Shown here piece after piece: positions 25,212 through 34,359 of a stretch of DNA of 64,000 nucleotides (position 1 is the first letter of the stretch; every line of letters starts with the position of its first letter). Source of the stretch: Bradyrhizobium sp. CB1650 (GTDB lineage Bacteria > Pseudomonadota > Alphaproteobacteria > Rhizobiales > Xanthobacteraceae); contig NZ_CP121695.1 of assembly GCF_029761915.1 (NCBI RefSeq), positions 6,415,501 through 6,479,500 of the forward strand, written 5' to 3'. The position numbers and the translations under genes are program-made. The notes beneath the pieces are model-generated. The model ran no database searches, was not told where the DNA came from, and worked only from the letters and a program-made list of their open reading frames with translations.

Positions 25212-25661
25212 ATGGCAAACCTAACAATTAACGGAAAAACCTTCACGCTTGACGTCGAGCCGGATACGCCGCTGCTTTGGGCAATCCGCGAGAATGCCGG
25301 CCTGACCGGCACGAAATATGGCTGCGGCATTGCACAATGCGGCTCCTGCACCGTTCACATCGACGGCGTCGCCACCCGTTCCTGCGGCGTCTCGGTCAGC
25401 GAGGCCGAGGGCAAGGGTGTCACCACCATCGAGGGGCTTGCGAGCGGTGGCATCCTGCACAAGGTGCAGGAAGCCTGGATCGCCCAGGATGTTCCGCAAT
25501 GCGGCTATTGCCAGAGCGGCATGATCATGGCGGTGGCGGCGCTCCTGAACGAGAAGCCAAAGCCGACCGACGCCGACATCGACGAGGCCATCACCAATAT
25601 CTGCCGCTGCGGCACCTTCCAGCAGGTGCGCGAGGCGATCCACACGATCGCAAGCGCTTAA
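25212..25661 (+). CDS. (2Fe-2S) small subunit of a molybdenum hydroxylase (isoquinoline 1-oxidoreductase alpha type)
   Basis: A 149-residue electron-transfer subunit of the xanthine dehydrogenase superfamily. The plant-type cluster is bound by C38, C43, C46 and C58 ([10 protein letters not shown]...C) and the second cluster by C97, C100, C131 and C133 (CGYC and CRCG). It passes electrons from the molybdenum site to a cytochrome or other acceptor. It has no signal peptide; in this two-subunit class the small subunit is exported together with the Tat-tagged large subunit. First gene of a seven-gene unit that continues with soxF and soxXYZA. Confidence 0.88.
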
Positions 25662-25673
25662 AGGAGCCGCCCC

Positions 25674-27857
25674 ATGAACAAGCACGTTTCGCCCCAGATG
25701 AACCGTCGCGCCTTCGTCATCGGCACTGCGGCTGCCGGCGCCGGCCTTGCGCTCGGCCTCGACATTCCCTTCGGCGGCCCGGCCGTTGGCCGCGCGGCCG
25801 ACGGCTCGCCCGAGATCAATGCCTGGGTCGTGGTCAGGCCCGACGATACCGTCGTGATTCGCGTTGCCCGCTCCGAGATGGGCCAGGGCTCGCTGACCGG
25901 CCTCGCCCAGCTCGTCGCCGAGGAGCTGGAATGCGACTGGACCAAAGTCACGACCGAATTCCCCTCGCCCGGACAGAACGTCGCCCGCAAGCGCGTGTGG
26001 GGCGACTATTCGACCGGCGGCAGCCGCGGCATCCGTAGCTCGCAGGACTATGTCCGCAAGGGCGGCGCCACCGCGCGCATGATGCTGATCCAGGCCGCGG
26101 CCAACGAATGGAAGGTGCCCGCCTCCGAATGTACGGCGGATAACAGCGTCATTACACATAAGCCATCCGGCAGGACCACGACCTACGGCAAGGTTGCCGA
26201 GGCGGCAGCAAAGCTGACGCCCCCGGCCGACGTGAAGCTGAAGGACCCCAAGGACTGGCGGCTGGTCGGCAAGGGCGTCAAGCGGCTCGACACGCCGGAC
26301 AAGGTCACCGGCACAACCGTCTACGGCATCGACGTCAAGCTGCCCGGCATGCTCAACGCGGCGATCAAGGACTGCCCGGTCACCGGCGGCAAGCTCAAGA
26401 GCTATGACGAAGCCAAGATCGCCGGCATGAAGGGCGTCAAGAAGGTCGTGAAGGTCGGCGACAGCGCGGTTGCGGTCGTGGCCGACACCTTCTGGCACGC
26501 CAAGTCCGCGCTCGATGCGCTGCCGATCGTCTGGGACGAAGGCGAGAACGCGAAGGTGTCGAGCGCCTCGATCGCGAAATGGCTGGCGGAAGGCCTCGAC
26601 AGCGGCCCGGCCTATGTCGGCAACGCGAATGGCGATGCCAAGGCCGCGCTCGCCGGCGCGGCGAAGACGATCGAGGCCGTCTACAACTATCCCTACCAGA
26701 ATCATGCCACCATGGAGCCGATGAACGCGACCGCGCTCTACACGACGGACAAATGCGAGGTCTGGTGCGGAACGCAGAATGGCGAGGCGGCCCTCGCCGC
26801 CGTGCTGGAAGCGTCAGAACTTCCGGCCGACAAATGCGACGTCCACAAGCTGATGCTCGGCGGCGGCTTCGGCCGGCGCGGCCAGACCGACTATGTCCGC
26901 CAGGCCGTGCTGATCGCCAAGCAGATGCCGGGCACACCGGTCAAGCTCCTATGGACGCGCGAAGAGGACATGGCGCACGGCCGCTACCATCCGATCACGC
27001 AATGCAAGCTGACCGCCGGCTTCGATGCCGCCGATAACCTGACGTCGCTGCACATCCGGATCTCCGGCCAGTCGATCCTCGCAAGCCTCAGGCCGGAGGC
27101 GCTGGTCAACGGCATGGACACGGCGACCTTCGCCGGCCTCAATGCCAAGGGCGACGCACCGTTCGGGTACTCGGTGCCCAACCTTCTGATCGAGCATTCG
27201 ATGCGCAACCCGCACATCATTCCGGGCTTCTGGCGCGGCGTGAACGTGAATCAGAATGCGATCTATGTCGAATGCTTCATGGACGAGCTGGCGCACGCGG
27301 TGAAGCAGGATCCGCTGGAGTTCAGGCGCAAGCTGATGAAGGACCACCCCAAACATCTGGCGGTGCTGGAGGCGGTGGCCGAGAAGATCGGCTGGGACAA
27401 GCCGGCGCCGCAGGGCATTTTCCGCGGGCTCGCTCACTTCGCGTCCTACGGCAGCTATGTCGCGGCGGCCGCGGAAATCTCCGTGACCGAGGGCACCAAG
27501 ATCAAGGTGCATCGAATCGTCGCGGCGACCGATCCCGGCTATGCCGTCAACCCGGCGCAGATCGAGCGCCAGATCGCGGGCTCCTTCGTCTACGGCCTGA
27601 GCGGATTGTTCTATGGCGGCTGCACCGTGAAGGACGGCGCGATCGTCGAGACCAACTTCGACACCTACGACTCGATGCGCATCGCTGCGATGCCCAAGGT
27701 CGAATCGATCGTGATGCCGAGCGGCGGCTTCTGGGGCGGCGTCGGCGAGCCGACCATCGGCGTTGCCGGACCTGCGGTGCTCAACGCCTATTTCGCGGCG
27801 ACGGGCAAGCGCATCCGCTCGGTGCCGCTGCGCGACCAGAACATCACCTTCGCCTGA
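25674..27857 (+). CDS. Molybdopterin-binding large subunit of a molybdenum hydroxylase (isoquinoline 1-oxidoreductase beta type)
   Basis: A 727-residue periplasmic enzyme with a Tat signal (MNRRAFVIG, then an alanine-glycine-rich helix). The molybdopterin cytosine dinucleotide-binding segments are visible (SEMGQGSLTGLAQLVAEEL; GGGFGRRGQTDYVRQAV) and the catalytic glutamate of the family is E692 (GGVGEPTIG). It lacks an FAD subunit, as expected of the IorAB/aldehyde dehydrogenase group whose electrons go to cytochrome c. It starts 12 bp after the small subunit. Known members oxidise aldehydes or N-heterocycles. The substrate here cannot be read, but coupling to sox genes suggests an organosulfur or related compound. 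Confidence 0.86.
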   Translation: MNKHVSPQMNRRAFVIGTAAAGAGLALGLDIPFGGPAVGRAADGSPEINAWVVVRPDDTVVIRVARSEMGQGSLTGLAQLVAEELECDWTKVTTEFPSPGQNVARKRVWGDYSTGGSRGIRSSQDYVRKGGATARMMLIQAAANEWKVPASECTADNSVITHKPSGRTTTYGKVAEAAAKLTPPADVKLKDPKDWRLVGKGVKRLDTPDKVTGTTVYGIDVKLPGMLNAAIKDCPVTGGKLKSYDEAKIAGMKGVKKVVKVGDSAVAVVADTFWHAKSALDALPIVWDEGENAKVSSASIAKWLAEGLDSGPAYVGNANGDAKAALAGAAKTIEAVYNYPYQNHATMEPMNATALYTTDKCEVWCGTQNGEAALAAVLEASELPADKCDVHKLMLGGGFGRRGQTDYVRQAVLIAKQMPGTPVKLLWTREEDMAHGRYHPITQCKLTAGFDAADNLTSLHIRISGQSILASLRPEALVNGMDTATFAGLNAKGDAPFGYSVPNLLIEHSMRNPHIIPGFWRGVNVNQNAIYVECFMDELAHAVKQDPLEFRRKLMKDHPKHLAVLEAVAEKIGWDKPAPQGIFRGLAHFASYGSYVAAAAEISVTEGTKIKVHRIVAATDPGYAVNPAQIERQIAGSFVYGLSGLFYGGCTVKDGAIVETNFDTYDSMRIAAMPKVESIVMPSGGFWGGVGEPTIGVAGPAVLNAYFAATGKRIRSVPLRDQNITFA

Positions 27858-27863
27858 GAAAAC

Positions 27864-27891
27864 GGCTGCGGCGGCCCGGGCTGCCGCAGCC
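27864..27891 (+). other. Intercistronic hairpin between the hydroxylase and sox genes
   Basis: GGCTGCGGC at 27864-27872 pairs perfectly with GCCGCAGCC at 27883-27891. The ten bases between can extend the stem. There is no T-tract. It ends 8 bp before the next start and could separate expression of the two halves of the operon. Confidence 0.55.
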
Positions 27892-27899
27892 ACTTCCGG

Positions 27900-29183
27900 A
27901 TGACGCTCATGACGACGCGCCCGGTGACACGGCGGAATGCCGTGGTCGGCATCGCCGCGGCGGCCGCAGCGCTGGCGCGGCCGTCGATTTCGCGCGCGCA
28001 GTCCGCGGCCCGCGTGGTCGTGGTCGGTGGCGGCTTTGGCGGCGCGGCCTGCGCCCGCGCGCTGAAGCGGACCAATGCAGCGCTTCAGGTCACGCTGATC
28101 GAACCGAACAAGATCTTCACCGCCTGCCCGTTCAGCAACGAGGTGATCGCGGGCCTGCGCGGGATCGAGCTGCAGCAATTCGGTTATGACAGGCTTGCCG
28201 CCGAAGGCATTGCTGTCATCCATCAGGCCGCAGCCAAGATCGACGCGCAGCAACGAACGGTCGCGGTGGCCGATGGCACCTCGTTTCCTTACAATCGCCT
28301 GGTGCTCTCGCCCGGCATCGACTTCCACTTCGAGGGCCTGCCCGGCTATGACGAAGCCGCGTCGGAAAAGATGCCGCACGCCTGGAAGGCCGGCGCACAG
28401 ACGCTTCTGCTGCGCAAGCAATTGGAAGCGATGGAGGATGGCGGCCTCGTCGCCATCGCAATCCCGGCCAATCCGTCGCGCTGCCCGCCGGCTCCTTACG
28501 AGCGCGCCAGCCTGATCGCGCATTACCTGAAGGCGAAGAAGCCGCGCTCGAAAGTCCTGATCCTCGATGCCAAGGACAATTTCACCCAGCAGCGGCTGTT
28601 CGAGCAGGCATGGAAGGAGCTCTACGGTGAGATGATCGAGCGCGTCGCGCTGTCGCAAGGCGGCCGCGTCACGTCAGTCGATCCGTCGACCGGGACCATC
28701 GTTACCGAGTTCGGCAATTACAGCCCCGAGGTCGCCAACGTCATTCCGCCGCAGCGCGCGGGGCGCATCGCCGAGATCGCGGGTGCGGCGGACGCAACCG
28801 GGTGGTGCCCGATCGATGCCGTGACCCTTGAATCGAAGCTCGCACCTGGCATTCACGTCATCGGCGACGCGTGCCTTGGCGGCGGCATTCCCAAATCGGC
28901 GTCCGCCGCCAGCGCGCAAGGCAAGGCTTGCGCAGCCGCCATCGTCAATTTGCTTGCAGGCCGTGCACCGGAATCGCCGCGGTTGACCGGCGTCTGCTAC
29001 AACACCGTCGCACCCGCTTACAGCTTCTCGCTTGCCGGCAACTACCAGCCGAAGGGCGAGATCTATGCCGAGGTCGAGGGCGGCACCACGAGCCCCATCG
29101 ATGCGCCACGCGAGCTGCGCGCCCGCGAGGCCGCCGACGCGGAACGCTGGTACCAAACCATCACGGCGGACAGCTTTGGCTAG
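27900..29183 (+). CDS. soxF: Sulfide dehydrogenase flavoprotein (SoxF/FccB type)
   Basis: A 427-residue exported flavoprotein with a Tat-type leader (TRRNAVVGIAAAAAA). The FAD-binding fold starts at VVVVGGGFGGAACARAL. The two cysteines that form the active-site disulfide of flavocytochrome c sulfide dehydrogenase are present: C195 (SRCPPAPYER) and C303 (GWCPID). Its usual heme partner FccA is not adjacent; SoxX, encoded 4 bp downstream, may take the electrons. An ATG at 27909 is an alternative start. It probably oxidises sulfide or a polysulfide-level intermediate. Confidence 0.83.
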   Translation: MTLMTTRPVTRRNAVVGIAAAAAALARPSISRAQSAARVVVVGGGFGGAACARALKRTNAALQVTLIEPNKIFTACPFSNEVIAGLRGIELQQFGYDRLAAEGIAVIHQAAAKIDAQQRTVAVADGTSFPYNRLVLSPGIDFHFEGLPGYDEAASEKMPHAWKAGAQTLLLRKQLEAMEDGGLVAIAIPANPSRCPPAPYERASLIAHYLKAKKPRSKVLILDAKDNFTQQRLFEQAWKELYGEMIERVALSQGGRVTSVDPSTGTIVTEFGNYSPEVANVIPPQRAGRIAEIAGAADATGWCPIDAVTLESKLAPGIHVIGDACLGGGIPKSASAASAQGKACAAAIVNLLAGRAPESPRLTGVCYNTVAPAYSFSLAGNYQPKGEIYAEVEGGTTSPIDAPRELRAREAADAERWYQTITADSFG

Positions 29184-29187
29184 ATCG

Positions 29188-29628
29188 ATGATCCATATCG
29201 CTGCTCTGGTCGCCGCAGGCCTCGTGTTCGCCACAGGCGCGAAGGCCGAGGGACTCGTGCCCTACAGGATCGTCGGCGACGGAATTCCGGAGCCGCTCAC
29301 CGGTGCGCCGGGCGATGCGGCGCGCGGACGCGCGCTTGTGCTCGCGCGCGGCACGACCTGCATCCTCTGCCATTCCGGGCCCTTCCCGGAGACGCGGTTC
29401 CAGGGCGATCTCGCTCCTGACCTCACAGGCGCGGGGAACCGGTGGTCGGTGAGCCAGTTGCGGCTTCGCCTGGTCGACGCGTCGCACTTCAACCCGCAGA
29501 CCATCATGCCGTCATACTATCGCATTGACGGCCTCGCGCGCGTTGGACGCAACTTCGCCGGCAAGCCGATCCTGTCAGCCGCAGAGATCGAGGATATCGT
29601 GGCCTTTCTTGCAACGCTTCGGGACTAG
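29188..29628 (+). CDS. soxX: Sulfur-oxidation cytochrome c SoxX
   Basis: A 146-residue periplasmic monoheme cytochrome. The Sec signal ends about residue 20 (GAKA). The heme motif is C58-I-L-C61-H62 and the distal ligand is probably M107 (TIMPSY). SoxX pairs with SoxA to attach thiosulfate to the SoxY cysteine and takes up the two electrons. Start at 29188 lies 4 bp after the soxF stop. Confidence 0.87.
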   Translation: MIHIAALVAAGLVFATGAKAEGLVPYRIVGDGIPEPLTGAPGDAARGRALVLARGTTCILCHSGPFPETRFQGDLAPDLTGAGNRWSVSQLRLRLVDASHFNPQTIMPSYYRIDGLARVGRNFAGKPILSAAEIEDIVAFLATLRD

Positions 29629-29636
29629 CACCATCC

Positions 29637-30104
29637 ATGCGAACCACGCGACGACAATTCCTCAGCCTTGCCGGAAGCGTCACAGCGGCCGGGACGATTC
29701 CCATCGTCACGCTGCGGCCGGTCGAGGCGACACCCGCGATGCTCAGCACGGCGATCCGCAACGTCGTCGGCGAAGCGCCGATACACATCGGCAAGGTGAA
29801 ACTCGATATTCCGCCGCTGGTCGAGAACGGCAACACGGTGCCGATCACGGTCAGCGTCGCAAGCCCGATGACGGCCACCGATTACGTCAAGAGCATCCAC
29901 GTCTTCAACGAGAAGAACCCGCAGCCGAACATCGGCAATTTCCATCTCGGTCCCTCGTCCGGGCGCGCCCAGGTCTCGACCCGGATTCGGCTCGCCGACA
30001 GCCAGAAGGTGGTCGCGATCGCCCGCCTCTCCGATGATTCCTTCTGGCAGGTGAGCGCTGACGTGGTCGTGACGCTGGCCGCCTGCACCGAGGAGGTGAA
30101 CTGA
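29637..30104 (+). CDS. soxY: Sulfur carrier SoxY with a non-standard C-terminus
   Basis: A 155-residue exported carrier with a Tat signal (TRRQFLSLAG). In SoxY the sulfur intermediate is carried on the cysteine of a C-terminal GGCGG arm. Here the chain ends TLAACTEEVN, so C150 is followed by four more residues after threonine and the glycines are replaced. The cysteine itself is retained. The last codon overlaps soxZ by one base. The changed arm may alter which partner can reach the sulfur, which matters because no SoxB gene is present. Confidence 0.82.
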   Translation: MRTTRRQFLSLAGSVTAAGTIPIVTLRPVEATPAMLSTAIRNVVGEAPIHIGKVKLDIPPLVENGNTVPITVSVASPMTATDYVKSIHVFNEKNPQPNIGNFHLGPSSGRAQVSTRIRLADSQKVVAIARLSDDSFWQVSADVVVTLAACTEEVN

Positions 30105-30424
30105 TGGCCGCAGCCCTGATCAACGTTCCGGCACGAGCCAAACGCGGCGACGTCATCGAGATCCGCACCCTGACCTCGCACATCATGGAGACCGGCTTTC
30201 GCCACATCGCGACCGGCGATCTCGTGCCCCGCGACATCATCACCAGCTTCACCTGCCGCTACAACGGCACCGAGATCTTTCGCGCCGATCTTTATCCAGC
30301 TATCGCCGCCAATCCATACCTGTCTTTCTTCACTGTCGCGAAGGAGAGCGGCAAGTTCGAGTTCGAATGGATCGGCGACAACGGCTACTCGTCCACCGCG
30401 TCGGCATCGATCACGGTCGAATGA
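30104..30424 (+). CDS. soxZ: Sulfur carrier partner SoxZ
   Basis: A 106-residue immunoglobulin-like protein with the expected segments ARAKRGDVIEIRTLTSHIMETG and a late FEFEWIGDNG strand. SoxZ forms the stable SoxYZ dimer and travels to the periplasm bound to Tat-exported SoxY, which explains the lack of its own signal. Start overlaps the soxY stop (TGATG) and its end overlaps soxA (ATGA). Confidence 0.88.
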   Translation: MAAALINVPARAKRGDVIEIRTLTSHIMETGFRHIATGDLVPRDIITSFTCRYNGTEIFRADLYPAIAANPYLSFFTVAKESGKFEFEWIGDNGYSSTASASITVE

Positions 30425-31200
30425 CCCATTGGCGTGCGATAGCGGTGGCGGTGCTGTGTGCTGCGACCCCTGCCCTGCTTGCTGGTGAAATTCCGCAAGA
30501 GACGCGCCGCTCCGGCTATTCCTTCATGGGACCCGAGACGCGCGCCATGCAGGACGATGACACCGCCAATCCCGGCATGCTGTTCGTGCTCGACGGCGAG
30601 GCGCTCTGGACCAAGAAGACTGGCCGTGCCGACAAGGCCTGCGCGGACTGCCACGGCGATGCACGTAGCAGCATGAAGGGTGTCGCGGCGCGCTATCCCG
30701 CTTTCGACAAGGCGCAGGGGCGCCCTGTTACCATCGAGCAGCGCATCAACCTCTGCCGCGCCGATCACCAACAGGCAACACCACTGGCTTACGAGAGCCA
30801 CGACCTCTTGGCATTGGCCGCCTTCGTCGCCCGCCAGTCCCGCGGCGTCGCGATCACGGCCGGCGACGATCCGGAGCTGAAGCCCTTCGTTGCGCAGGGC
30901 CGCGAGCTCTTCATGCGGCGCGAGGGCCAGCTCAACCTCGCCTGCACCAACTGCCACGACGACAATTTCGACAAGCGCCTCGCGGGTGCGCCGATCACGC
31001 AAGCGCAGCCGACCGGCTATCCGCTCTATCGCCTGGAATGGCAGACGCTGGGATCGCTGGAGCGCCGGCTGCGAAGCTGCATGACCGGCGTGCGCGCGCA
31101 GGCCTATGATTACGGGTCGCCCGAGCTGGTCGCGCTCGAACTCTATCTGATGTCGCGGGCGCGCGGCCTGCCGATGGAGGCGCCGGCCGTGCGGCCGTGA
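30421..31200 (+). CDS. soxA: Diheme cytochrome SoxA
   Basis: A 259-residue periplasmic protein with a Sec signal ending near residue 21. Two heme motifs are present, C74-A-D-C-H78 and C175-T-N-C-H179, giving the diheme form. The active-site cysteine that carries the persulfide ligand is C220 (LRSCMTGVRAQ). With SoxX it forms the SoxAX enzyme that loads sulfur on SoxYZ. It is the last gene of the unit; soxB, soxC and soxD do not follow. Confidence 0.87.
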   Translation: MTHWRAIAVAVLCAATPALLAGEIPQETRRSGYSFMGPETRAMQDDDTANPGMLFVLDGEALWTKKTGRADKACADCHGDARSSMKGVAARYPAFDKAQGRPVTIEQRINLCRADHQQATPLAYESHDLLALAAFVARQSRGVAITAGDDPELKPFVAQGRELFMRREGQLNLACTNCHDDNFDKRLAGAPITQAQPTGYPLYRLEWQTLGSLERRLRSCMTGVRAQAYDYGSPELVALELYLMSRARGLPMEAPAVRP

Positions 31201-31278: not shown

Positions 31279-32604
31279 GTGGCCAACCACAACATCTCGC
31301 GCCGCACGCTTTTGACGGGCACCGCCGCGGCAGGCGCGCTCAGCCTGACCGGTTTTCCGGCCCACGCCGACGTCAACTGGAAGAAATATGCCGGGACCAA
31401 GCTCGAGGTGATCCTCGCCAAGGGTCCGCGCGGCGACAACCTGCAAAAGAACATCAAGGAGTTCACCGACCTCACCGGCATCCAGGTCGAATCCGAGCAG
31501 ATCCCGGAGCAGCAGCAGCGCCAAAAAGTCGTGATCGAGCTCACCTCCGGACGGCCGAGCTTCGACGTCGTGCATCTCAGCTATCACGTGCAGAAGCGGC
31601 AGTTCGAGAAAGCCGGCTGGCTCGCCGACATGACTCCCTTCATGAAGGATCCGACGCTGACCGCGCCCGATCTCGTGGAGAGCGATTTCTCGGCCGCCGG
31701 CCTGCAATACGCCAAGAACGACAAGGGTCAGATGCTGTCGCTGCCGTGGTCGGTCGACTATTTCATTCTCTATTACAACAAGGAGCTGTTCCAGAAGAAG
31801 GGCGTCGCGGTGCCGAAGACCTTCGATGAGATGGTCGCGGCCGCCGAGAAGCTGACCGATCCGAAGGAAGGGACCTACGGCTTCGTCGGACGCGGCTTGC
31901 GCAACGCCAACATGACGTTGTGGACCAACTTCTTCCTCAACTATGGCGGTGAATTCCTCGACGCCAAGGGCAACATCCTGACCGACGGGCCGGAGGCGAT
32001 TGAGGCGACAAAACTCTACCAGACGCTGCTGACGAAGGTCGCCCCGCCCGGCGTTGCCGGCTTCAACTGGATGGAGTCGATGGCCTCGTTCACGCAAGGA
32101 CGCTCGGCGATGTGGATCGACGGCGTCGGCTGGGCGCCGCCGCTGGAGGATCCGGCCGCCTCACGCGTGGTCGGCAAGGTGGGCTACACCGTCGTGCCCG
32201 CCGGACCGAAGGGACAATATTCGGCCACCTATGGCGACGGCGTCGGCATTGCGGCCGCCAGCAAGAACAAGGAAGCCGCCTATCTGCTCTGCCAATGGGT
32301 GGTCTCCAAGCAACAGGGCGCAAGGCTGTTGCAGGCCGGCGGCGGCGTGCCGCTCCGCAACTCGATCCTGAACGATCCCGAGATCCAGAAGGGCGTGAAG
32401 ATGCCGAAGGAGTGGCTGCAATCGGTGATCGATTCCGCCAAGATCAGCAAGCTGGGCCTGCCGGTGGTCATCCCGGTCGCCGAATTTCGCGATCTCGTTG
32501 GCGCAGCGATCACCGCGACCCTTGCCGGTGCCGATCCCGCGACTGAGCTGAAGAAGGCGCACGAGCAGTACCGGCCGATCCTGGAGCGCAGCGAAAAGGC
32601 GTGA
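31279..32604 (+). CDS. ABC importer substrate-binding protein, carbohydrate (family 1) type
   Basis: A 441-residue periplasmic binding protein with a Tat-like leader (SRRTLLTGTAAAGAL, cleavage near AHA). The body matches sugar-binding proteins, with NIKEFTDLTGIQVESEQIPEQQ and PWSVDYFILYYNKELFQKKGV as typical segments. It overlaps the next gene by GTGA. The sugar or polyol is unknown. Confidence 0.86.
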   Translation: MANHNISRRTLLTGTAAAGALSLTGFPAHADVNWKKYAGTKLEVILAKGPRGDNLQKNIKEFTDLTGIQVESEQIPEQQQRQKVVIELTSGRPSFDVVHLSYHVQKRQFEKAGWLADMTPFMKDPTLTAPDLVESDFSAAGLQYAKNDKGQMLSLPWSVDYFILYYNKELFQKKGVAVPKTFDEMVAAAEKLTDPKEGTYGFVGRGLRNANMTLWTNFFLNYGGEFLDAKGNILTDGPEAIEATKLYQTLLTKVAPPGVAGFNWMESMASFTQGRSAMWIDGVGWAPPLEDPAASRVVGKVGYTVVPAGPKGQYSATYGDGVGIAAASKNKEAAYLLCQWVVSKQQGARLLQAGGGVPLRNSILNDPEIQKGVKMPKEWLQSVIDSAKISKLGLPVVIPVAEFRDLVGAAITATLAGADPATELKKAHEQYRPILERSEKA

Positions 32605-33538
32605 GTGCGTTGACACAAGCTAGTCCGGCCGCGGCTCAATCGGATGCCGCGCCGGAGAAGGAGTTGCGGCCACCGTCCTACTGGCCGTTCGTGGTGCCGG
32701 CGCTGGTCGTCGTGCTCGCCATCATCATCTTCCCGTGGGTCTTCACCATCTGGATGAGCCTGAACGAGTGGAAGGTCGGCTCGCCGACCACCTTCGTCGG
32801 GCTTTCCAATTATCTGCGGCTGACGAGCGATCCGCGCTTCCTCGAGGCGGTGGGCCACACGATGGTCTATACCGTGCTGTCAGTGTTGCTGCCGCTGGTC
32901 CTCGGCACGCTCGCGGCCGTGGTGTTTCACCAGAAATTCGCCGGACGCGGTTTCCTGCGCGGCGTCTTCATCATGCCGATGATGGCAACGCCCGTGGCGA
33001 TCGCGCTGGTCTGGACCATGATGTTCCATCCGCAGCTCGGGGGCTCAACTATCTCTTGTCGCTGGTCGGCATTCCGCCGCAGCTCTGGGTGTTTCACCCC
33101 GCGACCGTGATCCCCTCGCTGGTGCTGGTCGAGACCTGGCAATGGACGCCGCTCGTGATGCTCATCGTGCTGGGCGGCCTCGCCGCGATCCCGACCGAGC
33201 CGTATGAGAGCGCACAGATCGACGGTGCCAGTTTCTGGCAGGCGTTCCGCTTCATTACCCTGCCGCTGATCATGCCGTTCCTGTTTATCGCGGGCATGAT
33301 CCGCATGATCGATGCGGTGAAGAGCTTCGATATCATCTTCGCGATCACGCAAGGGGGACCGGGCTCGGCGTCCGAGACGATCAACATCTATCTCTACAGC
33401 GTCGCCTTCACCTATTACGACCTTGGTTATGGCTCGGCGATCGCAGTGGTGTTCTTCCTGCTGATCGTGTTGCTGGCGGCCGTCATGCTCTATTTCCGCC
33501 AGCGCATGCTGTGGACTGAAATCGGGAGCGGTGCATGA
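32601..33538 (+). pseudogene. ABC sugar permease gene broken by a frameshift
   Basis: The first frame (GTG at 32601) encodes the N-terminal half of a MalF/UgpA-type permease up to MMFHPQLG and then runs into a stop at 33110. The rest, starting LNYLLSLVGIPPQLWVF and including an EAA loop (SAQIDGASFWQAFRFITLPLIMP), lies in another frame to 33538. The break is at a run of five G at 33039-33043, where one base is missing relative to an intact gene. It could be a real mutation or a homopolymer sequencing error; if real, the importer is inactive. Start overlaps the binding-protein stop; end overlaps the second permease (ATGA). Confidence 0.8.
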
Positions 33539-34359
33539 ACCTGCGCAGCATCCTCGGCAGGATCGGGCTGTGGTTCGCGGTGTTCGTCATCGTCTCGCCG
33601 GCAATCCTGTTCTTCCTCTGGATGGCTTCGCTGTCCCTCAAATTCGAAGTCGACAACGCCGCCTACCCGCCCGTGTTCATTCCCGAGCACTTTGCCTGGA
33701 AGAATTATGCCGACGTACTCGCCTCCAACCGCTTCCTGACCTATTTCATCAACAGCCTGATCGTGACCGGCAGCGCAACCGCACTCGCGCTGCTCGTCGG
33801 CGTTCCCGCCGGCTATGGCATCGCGCGGATGGCCGCGCACAAATCCGCGATCGTGATCCTGATCGCCCGCATCACGCCGGGCTTGTCCTATCTGATCCCG
33901 CTGTTCCTCCTGTTTCAGTGGCTGGGATTGCTCGGCACGCTGGTGCCGCAGATCATCATCCACCTCGTGGTGACGGTGCCGATCGTGATCTGGATCATGA
34001 TCGGCTATTTCGAGACCACGCCGCTGGAGCTGGAGGAAGCAGCACTCATCGACGGCGCCACGCGCTGGCAGGTCTTCCGTCACGTCGCCTTGCCGATCGC
34101 TCGTCCTGGAATCGCGGTCGCCTTCATCCTGGCCGTGATCTTCTCCTGGAACAATTTCGTTTTCGGCATCGTGCTGGCGGGACGAGAGACGCGCACGCTG
34201 CCCGTTGCGGTCTACAACATGATCTCGTTCGACCAGCTTAGCTGGGGGCCGCTGGCCGCCGCCGCGCTGATTGTGACCTTCCCGGTGCTGCTGCTCACGG
34301 TGCTCGCCCAGCGGCAGATCGTCGCCGGGCTCACTGCGGGCGCGGTGAAGGGCGGGTAG
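33535..34359 (+). CDS. ABC sugar permease, MalG type
   Basis: A 274-residue inner-membrane protein with about six hydrophobic segments and the ATPase-contacting EAA loop (EEAALIDGATRWQVFRHVAL followed by PIARPG). It is the second permease of the importer. No ATP-binding subunit is encoded nearby, so a shared ATPase such as an MsmK/UgpC-like protein elsewhere would be needed. It overlaps the preceding gene by ATGA. Confidence 0.85.
   Translation: MNLRSILGRIGLWFAVFVIVSPAILFFLWMASLSLKFEVDNAAYPPVFIPEHFAWKNYADVLASNRFLTYFINSLIVTGSATALALLVGVPAGYGIARMAAHKSAIVILIARITPGLSYLIPLFLLFQWLGLLGTLVPQIIIHLVVTVPIVIWIMIGYFETTPLELEEAALIDGATRWQVFRHVALPIARPGIAVAFILAVIFSWNNFVFGIVLAGRETRTLPVAVYNMISFDQLSWGPLAAAALIVTFPVLLLTVLAQRQIVAGLTAGAVKGG

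What the first reader, a model, noticed from the sequence alone, without database searches (positions are those of the whole stretch)
25212..31200. Molybdenum hydroxylase genes joined to soxF-soxXYZA without soxB or soxCD
Seven genes on one strand, with gaps of 42 bp or less or overlaps, link a Tat-exported two-subunit molybdenum hydroxylase to a sulfide dehydrogenase flavoprotein and the SoxAX/SoxYZ carrier set. Known Sox pathways need SoxB to release sulfate, and often SoxCD. The gene set here suggests a sulfur pathway in which an organosulfur or other compound is hydroxylated in the periplasm and the sulfur is loaded on SoxYZ, or in which both parts share cytochrome acceptors. The link in function is inference; the gene order is seen directly.
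Basis: partly seen in the sequence, partly recalled or inferred. Interest (0 to 1): 0.72.

Follow-up and report, generated by a model that had tools for sequence, protein, structure and literature searches.

The report
Molybdenum hydroxylase wired to Sox carriers
A block of seven bacterial genes joins a molybdenum enzyme to part of the classic sulfur-oxidation machinery, with an altered sulfur-carrying arm and without its usual sulfate-releasing enzyme, and it recurs as a unit in many bacteria, so it probably does an undescribed kind of sulfur chemistry.

Summary
The gene order is real: iorA-iorB-soxF-soxX-soxY-soxZ-soxA, window 25212-31200, + strand. Its arm ends LAACTEE instead of GGCGG, and it matches NCBIfam TIGR04487 above cut-off and the true-SoxY model below cut-off. 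The window's genome has soxB and a GGCGG SoxY elsewhere, so 'no soxB' fails for this strain. In the three genome samples, however, the hydroxylase adjoins this SoxY type in 38 of 41 carriers over cut-off, and 21 of those 41 genomes have no SoxB over its cut-off. None of 24 GGCGG SoxY loci and none of 21 more distant IorB loci show the pairing. Cofactor and catalytic residues are invariant. IorB trees place SoxYZ-linked enzymes in at least three places. One complete genome keeps IorAB-SoxX-SoxA with no SoxY. I conclude that this is a conserved periplasmic unit that can do without SoxB, with the hydroxylase as its most constant partner. That the hydroxylase acts on a sulfur compound handled by SoxYZ is favoured but unproven; the substrate is unknown. 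The searches run found no paper describing the pairing.

The parts
25212..25661 (+). IorA: [2Fe-2S] small subunit of a xanthine-oxidase-family molybdenum hydroxylase
   Evidence: Pfam Fer2_2 98 bits, Fer2 41 bits; nearest solved chain 8gy3_B, small subunit of aldehyde dehydrogenase; its 8 cysteines invariant in 43 of 43 rows
25674..27857 (+). IorB: molybdenum-binding large subunit; twin-arginine stretch (NRRAFV) near the N-terminus read by eye
   Evidence: MoCoBD_1 111 bits, MoCoBD_2 100 bits; nearest solved chain 8gy3_C, E 4e-78; Glu692 of GVGE in 84 of 84 IorB rows
27900..29183 (+). SoxF: flavoprotein of flavocytochrome c sulfide dehydrogenase
   Evidence: FCSD_central 157 bits, FCSD flavin-binding 70 bits; 5n1t_A E 1e-122; C195 and C366 invariant in 28 of 28 rows
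29188..29628 (+). SoxX: monohaem cytochrome c
   Evidence: TIGR04485 over cut-off (longer ORF); 2c1d_B E 1e-23; CxxCH cysteines invariant in 43 of 43 rows
29637..30104 (+). SoxY-related carrier with AACTE arm (TIGR04487)
   Evidence: 226.6 bits, cut-off 172; true SoxY TIGR04488 107.2, below cut-off 125; arm alignments
30104..30424 (+). SoxZ carrier partner
   Evidence: TIGR04490 82.4 bits, cut-off 76
30421..31200 (+). SoxA: dihaem cytochrome with active-site cysteine C220
   Evidence: TIGR04484 236 bits, cut-off 110 (longer ORF); 1h31_A E 4e-54 with the cysteine aligned; C74, C77, C112, C175, C178, C220 invariant in 43 of 43 rows

Best explanation
The cluster encodes one periplasmic redox unit. 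Shown: it is conserved as a block, its cofactor residues are intact, and about half of the carriers have no SoxB over cut-off. Inferred from the families: SoxAX (haem with cysteine ligand) couples a sulfur compound oxidatively to the cysteine of the AC-x-E/D arm of SoxYZ. The molybdenum hydroxylase IorAB then works on that carrier-bound compound, or on the same compound just before loading, so that no SoxB is needed to free sulfate. SoxF, with a small cytochrome in many relatives, deals with released sulfide or persulfide, and electrons go to c-type cytochromes. Confidence by step: one functional unit 0.85; independent of SoxB 0.85; IorAB acts on a sulfur compound bound or about to be bound to SoxYZ 0.4; the compound is organic (a thiol or thione carbon) rather than inorganic 0.3.
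For: IorB adjoins SoxXYZA in 38 of 41 carriers with TIGR04487 over cut-off (2 of the other 3 are split by contig ends), and in 22 of 23 below-cut-off loci with an AC-type arm; 10 of those 22 came from a late check of loci whose neighbours I had not seen. Controls: 0 of 24 GGCGG SoxY loci have IorA or IorB, nor do 6 of 7 further GGC-arm loci, the seventh having a 56-bit hit on the other strand; 0 of 21 IorB loci of about 40-44% identity have SoxXYZA within 6 kb (one, L199, is cut by a contig end downstream). SoxB over cut-off in only 20 of 41 carriers; in 9 of 14 genomes that I chose, the only SoxY is the cluster's. Cofactor residues invariant. SoxYZ linkage lies in at least three places of the IorB tree; one clade for all is rejected, AU p 2e-74. 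Distances of IorB and SoxY correlate, r 0.82. Of 26 positions that mark the sox-linked IorBs, 4 lie in residues 694-698, right after Glu692.
Against: No substrate, activity or expression data. XO-family enzymes are known on aldehydes and N-heterocycles, and an IorAB relative oxidises deoxyribose (PMC6365646, passages); no paper passage that I saw gives one a sulfur substrate. Four sox-clade IorBs have no sox genes beside them (G662, G585, G422, G386), and in G422 and G386 the SoxXYZA genes lie on another contig without IorB. One complete genome keeps IorAB-SoxX-SoxA without any SoxY (G362). The SoxY of one SoxB-free carrier, G247, has an in-frame TGA and lacks its signal part. SoxF is missing from many clusters, and in the window no small cytochrome accompanies it. 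About half of the carriers, the window's genome included, do have SoxB.
Confidence: 0.42

Rival explanations
1. IorAB oxidises an ordinary aldehyde or heterocycle in the periplasm, and SoxXA (plus SoxYZ) is only its cytochrome acceptor or electron relay.
For: An IorAB relative has an operon cytochrome c that might accept its electrons (PMC6365646, passages); the nearest solved relative is an aldehyde dehydrogenase. G362 keeps IorAB-SoxX-SoxA and no SoxY.
Against: In every other fetched locus where IorB stands beside SoxX or SoxA, SoxYZ is there too; the arm cysteine and SoxA C220 are kept. Two other IorB lineages pair with SoxYZ, one of them with no SoxAX in the stretch. Only 1 of 20 control IorB loci had a triheme cytochrome beside it on the same strand, so 'SoxX replaces the usual cytochrome' is weakly based.
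Confidence: 0.22
2. SoxAX/SoxYZ maintain or protect IorAB (keep the molybdenum sulfido ligand, remove sulfur adducts, or keep disulfides), as proposed for the SoxYZ-like proteins beside PQQ dehydrogenases.
For: A fused SoxYZ-like protein accompanies PQQ alcohol dehydrogenases, with such roles suggested (PMC12997753, passages); the window's genome has a fused SoxYZ of that family (TIGR04557). It would explain SoxYZ with different dehydrogenases and no SoxB.
Against: XdhC-family proteins, the usual sulfurating chaperones (recalled), are present in 29 of 29 genomes tested; the 21 control IorB loci have no SoxYZ beside them; SoxF and SoxAX are much machinery for maintenance.
Confidence: 0.18
3. 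A second feeder module for the canonical Sox pathway, using SoxB and SoxCD encoded elsewhere in the genome.
For: SoxB is present in the window's genome and in 20 of 41 carriers.
Against: 21 of 41 carriers, 17 of them at least 90% complete and at most 5% contaminated, have no SoxB over cut-off.
Confidence: 0.08
4. A decaying remnant of a sox operon beside an unrelated hydroxylase.
For: soxB and soxCD are missing from the cluster; one relative has lost soxYZ; single broken genes occur (SoxY in G247; IorB in G307; IorA in two ORFs in G356).
Against: The cofactor residues checked are invariant in 43 of 43 rows (28 of 28 for SoxF); same order in 70 of 80 Bradyrhizobium-type loci and, with or without SoxF, in many other families and outside the class.
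Confidence: 0.02

Closest known systems
Canonical Sox system (SoxXA, SoxYZ with GGCGG arm, SoxB, often SoxCD)
   Same: SoxX, SoxZ and SoxA over NCBIfam cut-offs; arm cysteine and SoxA active-site cysteine kept
   Different: SoxY arm AC-x-E/D and true-SoxY model below cut-off; no SoxB/SoxCD in the cluster; no SoxB over cut-off in 21 of 41 genomes; IorAB is the constant partner
NCBIfam TIGR04487 'SoxY-related AACIE arm protein'
   Same: The SoxY is a member (226.6 bits, cut-off 172)
   Different: The model names a protein without a function; its steady link to IorAB and SoxXZA was found in no paper seen here
Quinoprotein-dehydrogenase-associated SoxYZ-like carrier (TIGR04557; PP_2677 in Pseudomonas putida)
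   Same: SoxYZ relative tied to a periplasmic dehydrogenase rather than to SoxB
   Different: SoxY and SoxZ fused there; PQQ enzyme instead of molybdenum; no SoxAX named in the passages read
IorAB-type periplasmic dehydrogenases (isoquinoline 1-oxidoreductase, deoxyribose dehydrogenase, aldehyde dehydrogenase 8gy3)
   Same: Same two-subunit architecture, GVGE Glu, 8 cysteines
   Different: Separate clade, with marker residues clustered after the Glu, and a sox operon beside it
Flavocytochrome c sulfide dehydrogenase (FccAB/SoxEF)
   Same: SoxF with both expected cysteines; a small cytochrome sits between IorB and SoxF in many relatives
   Different: The small cytochrome gene is missing from the window and its closest relatives; SoxF is absent from many clusters

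Membership tests
Canonical thiosulfate-oxidising Sox system | SoxY with GGCGG arm (TIGR04488) | tested here: not met
   107.2 bits, below cut-off 125; arm AACTEE
Canonical thiosulfate-oxidising Sox system | SoxB in the cluster or genome | tested here: not met
   not in the cluster; present elsewhere in this genome; over cut-off in 20 of 41 carriers
Canonical thiosulfate-oxidising Sox system | SoxXA with cysteine-ligated haem in SoxA | tested here: met
   TIGR04484 and TIGR04485 over cut-off; C220 aligned to 1h31 and invariant; haem ligation itself is inferred from the family
Canonical thiosulfate-oxidising Sox system | SoxCD | not tested
   none in the cluster; no genome-wide search made
TIGR04487 AACIE-arm SoxY | score over curated cut-off | tested here: met
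   226.6 against 172
Xanthine-oxidase-family hydroxylase (IorAB type) | two [2Fe-2S] domains with 8 Cys; MoCo domains; catalytic Glu | tested here: met
   that the GVGE Glu is catalytic is recalled
Xanthine-oxidase-family hydroxylase (IorAB type) | substrate and activity | not testable with these tools
   needs biochemistry
Flavocytochrome c sulfide dehydrogenase | flavoprotein with both redox cysteines | tested here: met
   the role of the two cysteines is recalled
Flavocytochrome c sulfide dehydrogenase | partner small cytochrome encoded beside it | tested here: not met
   42-bp gap in the window; present in relatives such as L045, L049, L136
Quinoprotein-associated SoxYZ (TIGR04557) | fused SoxYZ over cut-off | tested here: not met
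   64.7 and 33.9 bits against cut-off 140

The most novel reading that the evidence does not exclude
A Sox-type pathway for organic sulfur: SoxAX fixes an organic thiol or thione on the AC-x-E arm of SoxYZ, and a molybdenum hydroxylase hydroxylates the carbon next to that sulfur while it sits on the carrier, cutting the C-S bond. This would be carrier-bound organosulfur chemistry that needs no SoxB, arisen or kept in at least three hydroxylase lineages.
Probability: 0.22. Interest if true: 0.85.

Novelty: new variant of a known kind. Interest (0 to 1): 0.62.

Why it matters
Genome surveys may take soxA, soxX, soxY and soxZ as signs of thiosulfate oxidation. Here these genes, in many genomes without SoxB, belong to a different unit, so such predictions could be wrong. 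A published SoxY survey removed sequences without the GGC motif (PMC11237559, passages and section 19), so this group should be missing from it. If the carrier mechanism holds, the SoxYZ arm is a general periplasmic sulfur handle that can be paired with different redox enzymes, and an orphan molybdenum enzyme clade found in many Bradyrhizobium records gets a testable role.

Tried and rejected
Absence of soxB in this genome: rejected, soxB is present. SoxYZ as stand-in for the Moco-sulfurating chaperone: weakened, XdhC family found in 29 of 29 genomes. SoxX as replacement of a usual triheme cytochrome: weak, only 1 of 20 control IorB loci had one on the same strand. A conserved extra neighbour that might name the substrate: none; besides the core genes no family was seen in more than 8 of 43 loci (an ABC ATPase). 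Equating the window's SoxY with soxY2 of B. diazoefficiens, reported as not essential for thiosulfate oxidation (PMC5748708, passages): not possible, since the passages do not say which gene it is; from a recalled abstract (Masuda 2010, not held) soxY2 is of the green-sulfur-bacterium type, which fits the other locus (L055) better. Promoter and terminator scan: nothing above shuffles.

Rows dropped or mislabelled: L188 (same place as L160), L190, L142 and ORFs under 650 aa left out of the IorB tree; L198 and L210 left out of the reduced tree (long or odd rows); 16 named loci, and those failing score limits, left out of the distance comparison. In some searches, L187 was labelled 'sox' by score though no sox genes lie in its 12 kb, L185 and L186 were so labelled though their SoxXYZA is on another contig, and L177 was put with its family's sox type though its contig ends before any sox gene. 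The clade tested was named after the first tree was seen and includes 2 IorBs without sox neighbours. The below-cut-off loci were chosen, not drawn: the first 12 partly for long matches or for an IorB seen nearby; 11 more were fetched as a check. No structure prediction and no search of the large protein database was made.
Full report
WHAT IS THERE. Seven + strand genes run from 25212 to 31200: iorA, iorB, soxF, soxX, soxY, soxZ, soxA. Gaps are 12, 42, 4 and 8 bp, then overlaps of 1 and 4 bp, so one transcript is likely but not shown; a promoter scan found nothing above shuffles. Pfam and NCBIfam support the assignments. IorB, SoxF and SoxY carry twin-arginine stretches near their N-termini, seen by eye and not tested with a predictor.

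THE CARRIER IS NOT SOXY PROPER. The SoxY scores 226.6 bits with TIGR04487, 'SoxY-related AACIE arm protein' (cut-off 172), and 107.2 with true SoxY (cut-off 125). Its arm reads LAACTEE. In the 18 relatives plus the window the motif is [A, P or S]-A-C-x-[E or D], against GGC in the two other SoxY-type proteins of the same genome. Over the wider set it is mostly [A, S, P or G]-A-C-x-[E or D], with exceptions AACVI (2 loci), AACLI, GACIV and GACAY; in the two loci of family f176 no such motif was found. Nine loci of family f20 end GACVDGG.

THE WINDOW'S GENOME. The window lies in a 9.43-Mb single-contig genome, by its relatives a Bradyrhizobium (inference: 77 of the 80 best loci bear that name in their titles; the other three are titled Frankia, Bradyrhizobiaceae and Alphaproteobacteria). 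It has three SoxY-type proteins: this one; a GGCGG SoxY beside SoxX, SoxZ, SoxA and SoxB; and a fused SoxYZ of the quinoprotein-associated family. So 'without soxB' is true of the cluster, not of the genome.

THE UNIT RECURS. TIGR04487 passes its cut-off in 17 of 297 genomes of the order, 21 of 385 of the class (2 shared with the order sample) and 15 of 398 of the phylum (10 shared with the order sample, 4 outside the class, and G987). These are 41 genomes, and the loci of all were read (the window for its own). IorB adjoins SoxXYZA in 38 of 41, with IorA too unless a contig end cuts it (G274, G417, G442). In 2 (G388, G366) the cluster is cut by contig ends, with IorAB-cytochrome-SoxF at the end of another contig. 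In 1 (G386) the two halves are on different contigs, well inside them. Of 23 loci below the cut-off with an AC-type arm, 22 have IorB beside SoxXYZA; in one of these (G307) IorB holds a stop codon. The exception, G422, has SoxXYZA with 1.8 kb of contig upstream and its IorB on another contig. These 23 were chosen, not drawn; 11 of them were fetched at the end as a check on loci whose neighbours I had not seen, and 10 of the 11 agreed. Among the 80 best loci, 70 have all seven genes in order, 7 are cut off upstream by contig ends, and 3 miss one gene in the search. Besides the core, no gene family appears in more than 8 of 43 loci.

CONTROLS. 24 GGCGG SoxY loci (20, L161-L163 and the genome's own L055): 0 have IorA or IorB in the stretch, while SoxF is near in many. 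Seven more loci with GGC arms of other endings (GGCLT, GGCIT, GGCAS, GGCVG): none has IorA, and one has a 56-bit IorB hit on the other strand; an eighth, L249, shows no clear arm. 21 IorB loci of roughly 40-44% identity to the window's (L191 and the 20): 0 have SoxXYZA within 6 kb; one of them, L199, has only 0.3 kb downstream. Seen from IorB: of 29 class genomes whose best IorB scores 960 bits or more, 22 have the SoxXYZA genes beside it, 2 are cut by contig ends, 1 has SoxX-SoxA only, and 4 have no sox genes beside it.

SOXB IS NOT NEEDED BY ALL. SoxB over its curated cut-off occurs in 14 of 17 carriers of the order sample, 1 of the 19 further class carriers, 4 of 4 phylum carriers outside the class, and G987: 20 of 41. 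Of the 21 without it, 17 genomes are at least 90% complete and at most 5% contaminated. Among the 23 below-cut-off carriers SoxB is over cut-off in 12. In 9 of 14 genomes that I chose, the only SoxY is the cluster's. SoxCD, Dsr and sHdr were not searched.

PARTS ARE INTACT. Across 42 relatives plus the window, IorA's 8 cysteines, the SoxX and SoxA haem cysteines and SoxA C220 are invariant; SoxF C195 and C366 are invariant in 28 of 28; IorB Glu692 in 84 of 84, non-sox rows included. Against this, a few single genes look broken: SoxY of G247 (in-frame TGA), IorB of G307, IorA of G356 (two ORFs). SoxF aligns to solved sulfide dehydrogenases, SoxA to 1h31 and SoxX to 2c1d. IorAB is nearest to the aldehyde dehydrogenase 8gy3. 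Sox-linked IorBs (48 rows, one of them L187 mislabelled) differ from 23 others at 26 positions, 4 of them within residues 694-698, just after Glu692; that this Glu is catalytic is recalled family knowledge.

EVOLUTION. In the IorB tree the window's type groups with a second type (family f138) that has SoxYZ and SoxA; support for the joint group is 98 and 93 in the reduced tree. Two more SoxYZ-linked types (f129, f176) lie apart from it; the exact place of f176, a long branch, is unsure. Forcing all into one clade costs 98 log-likelihood units, AU p 2e-74, although the group was named after the first tree and ancestral linkage with many losses is possible. Distances of IorB and SoxY correlate at r 0.82, within the 0.71-0.86 seen among SoxX, Y, Z and A; shared descent alone can give this. 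A telling oddity: G362, a complete single-contig genome, keeps IorA-IorB-SoxX-SoxA, SoxA cysteine included, with no room for SoxYZ in the gap and no SoxY found anywhere. SoxF and its small cytochrome are variable; the window and its closest relatives lack the small cytochrome.

HOW IT MAY WORK. By family knowledge SoxAX makes a disulfide between a sulfur compound and SoxY's cysteine, and XO-type enzymes hydroxylate a carbon (aldehyde or aromatic C-H) and pass electrons on by [2Fe-2S] clusters. An IorAB relative oxidises deoxyribose, with a cytochrome c in the operon that might take the electrons (PMC6365646, passages). The favoured reading is that IorAB acts on the compound that SoxAX and SoxYZ handle. 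Rivals are a pure electron-relay role, and a maintenance role as suggested for SoxYZ-like proteins near PQQ dehydrogenases (PMC12997753, passages). Choosing needs biochemistry.

KNOWN OR NEW. Paper searches for the AACIE protein and for SoxY, SoxA and isoquinoline 1-oxidoreductase together gave no paper, as did isoquinoline 1-oxidoreductase with thiosulfate oxidation. Broader searches listed 20 of 57, 30 of 202, 15 of 49 and 30 of 100 papers; in the listings and the passages opened I saw no description of the pairing. The library holds open-licence papers only. The Polynucleobacter genome paper compares its sox clusters with B. japonicum and notes genes shared with it (PMC3308952, passages); its figure, not held, may show this cluster. 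The four phylum carriers with about 2-Mb genomes could be that genus (inference). The protein family has a name but no function; the system is best called a new variant of a known kind.

Noticed in passing
window 32601-33538, +: The first ABC permease gene downstream of soxA appears as two overlapping ORFs in different frames (32601-33110 and 32735-33538), while relatives L041 and L043 show one longer ORF: a frameshift or a sequencing error.
   Followed up: no
window 31279-34359, +: A sugar-type ABC solute-binding protein and permeases follow soxA on the same strand after 78 bp; the binding protein is found in 48 of the 80 loci and was not seen as a conserved neighbour elsewhere.
   Followed up: partly
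L171 8783-12916: IorA-IorB-SoxX-SoxA without SoxY or SoxZ in a complete genome in which no SoxY was found.
   Followed up: partly
L178 5445-6296, L179 5424-6347, L180 5409-6275, L181 55-1002: A protein resembling formylglycine-generating enzymes (recalled look, not tested) sits near SoxYZ/IorAB clusters of two other families.
   Followed up: no
L245-L248, L251, L252: Another recurring group: small cytochrome-SoxF-SoxY-SoxZ with arms such as GGCLT or GGCIT, without IorAB, SoxX or SoxA hits in the stretch except a 56-bit IorB-like hit in L248.
   Followed up: no
L055 9381-15517: The genome's other sox locus (soxXYZAB) has a SoxA without its first CxxCH, and an MBL-fold protein with distant likeness to persulfide dioxygenases close to soxB.
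   Followed up: partly
L054 9478-10530, -: A fused SoxYZ of the quinoprotein-associated family, the third SoxY-type protein of this genome.
   Followed up: partly
L156 and L047 (G478:C4:133318, G285:C33:137349): An XdhC-family domain lies within 0.9 kb downstream of soxA in two SoxB-free carriers.
   Followed up: no
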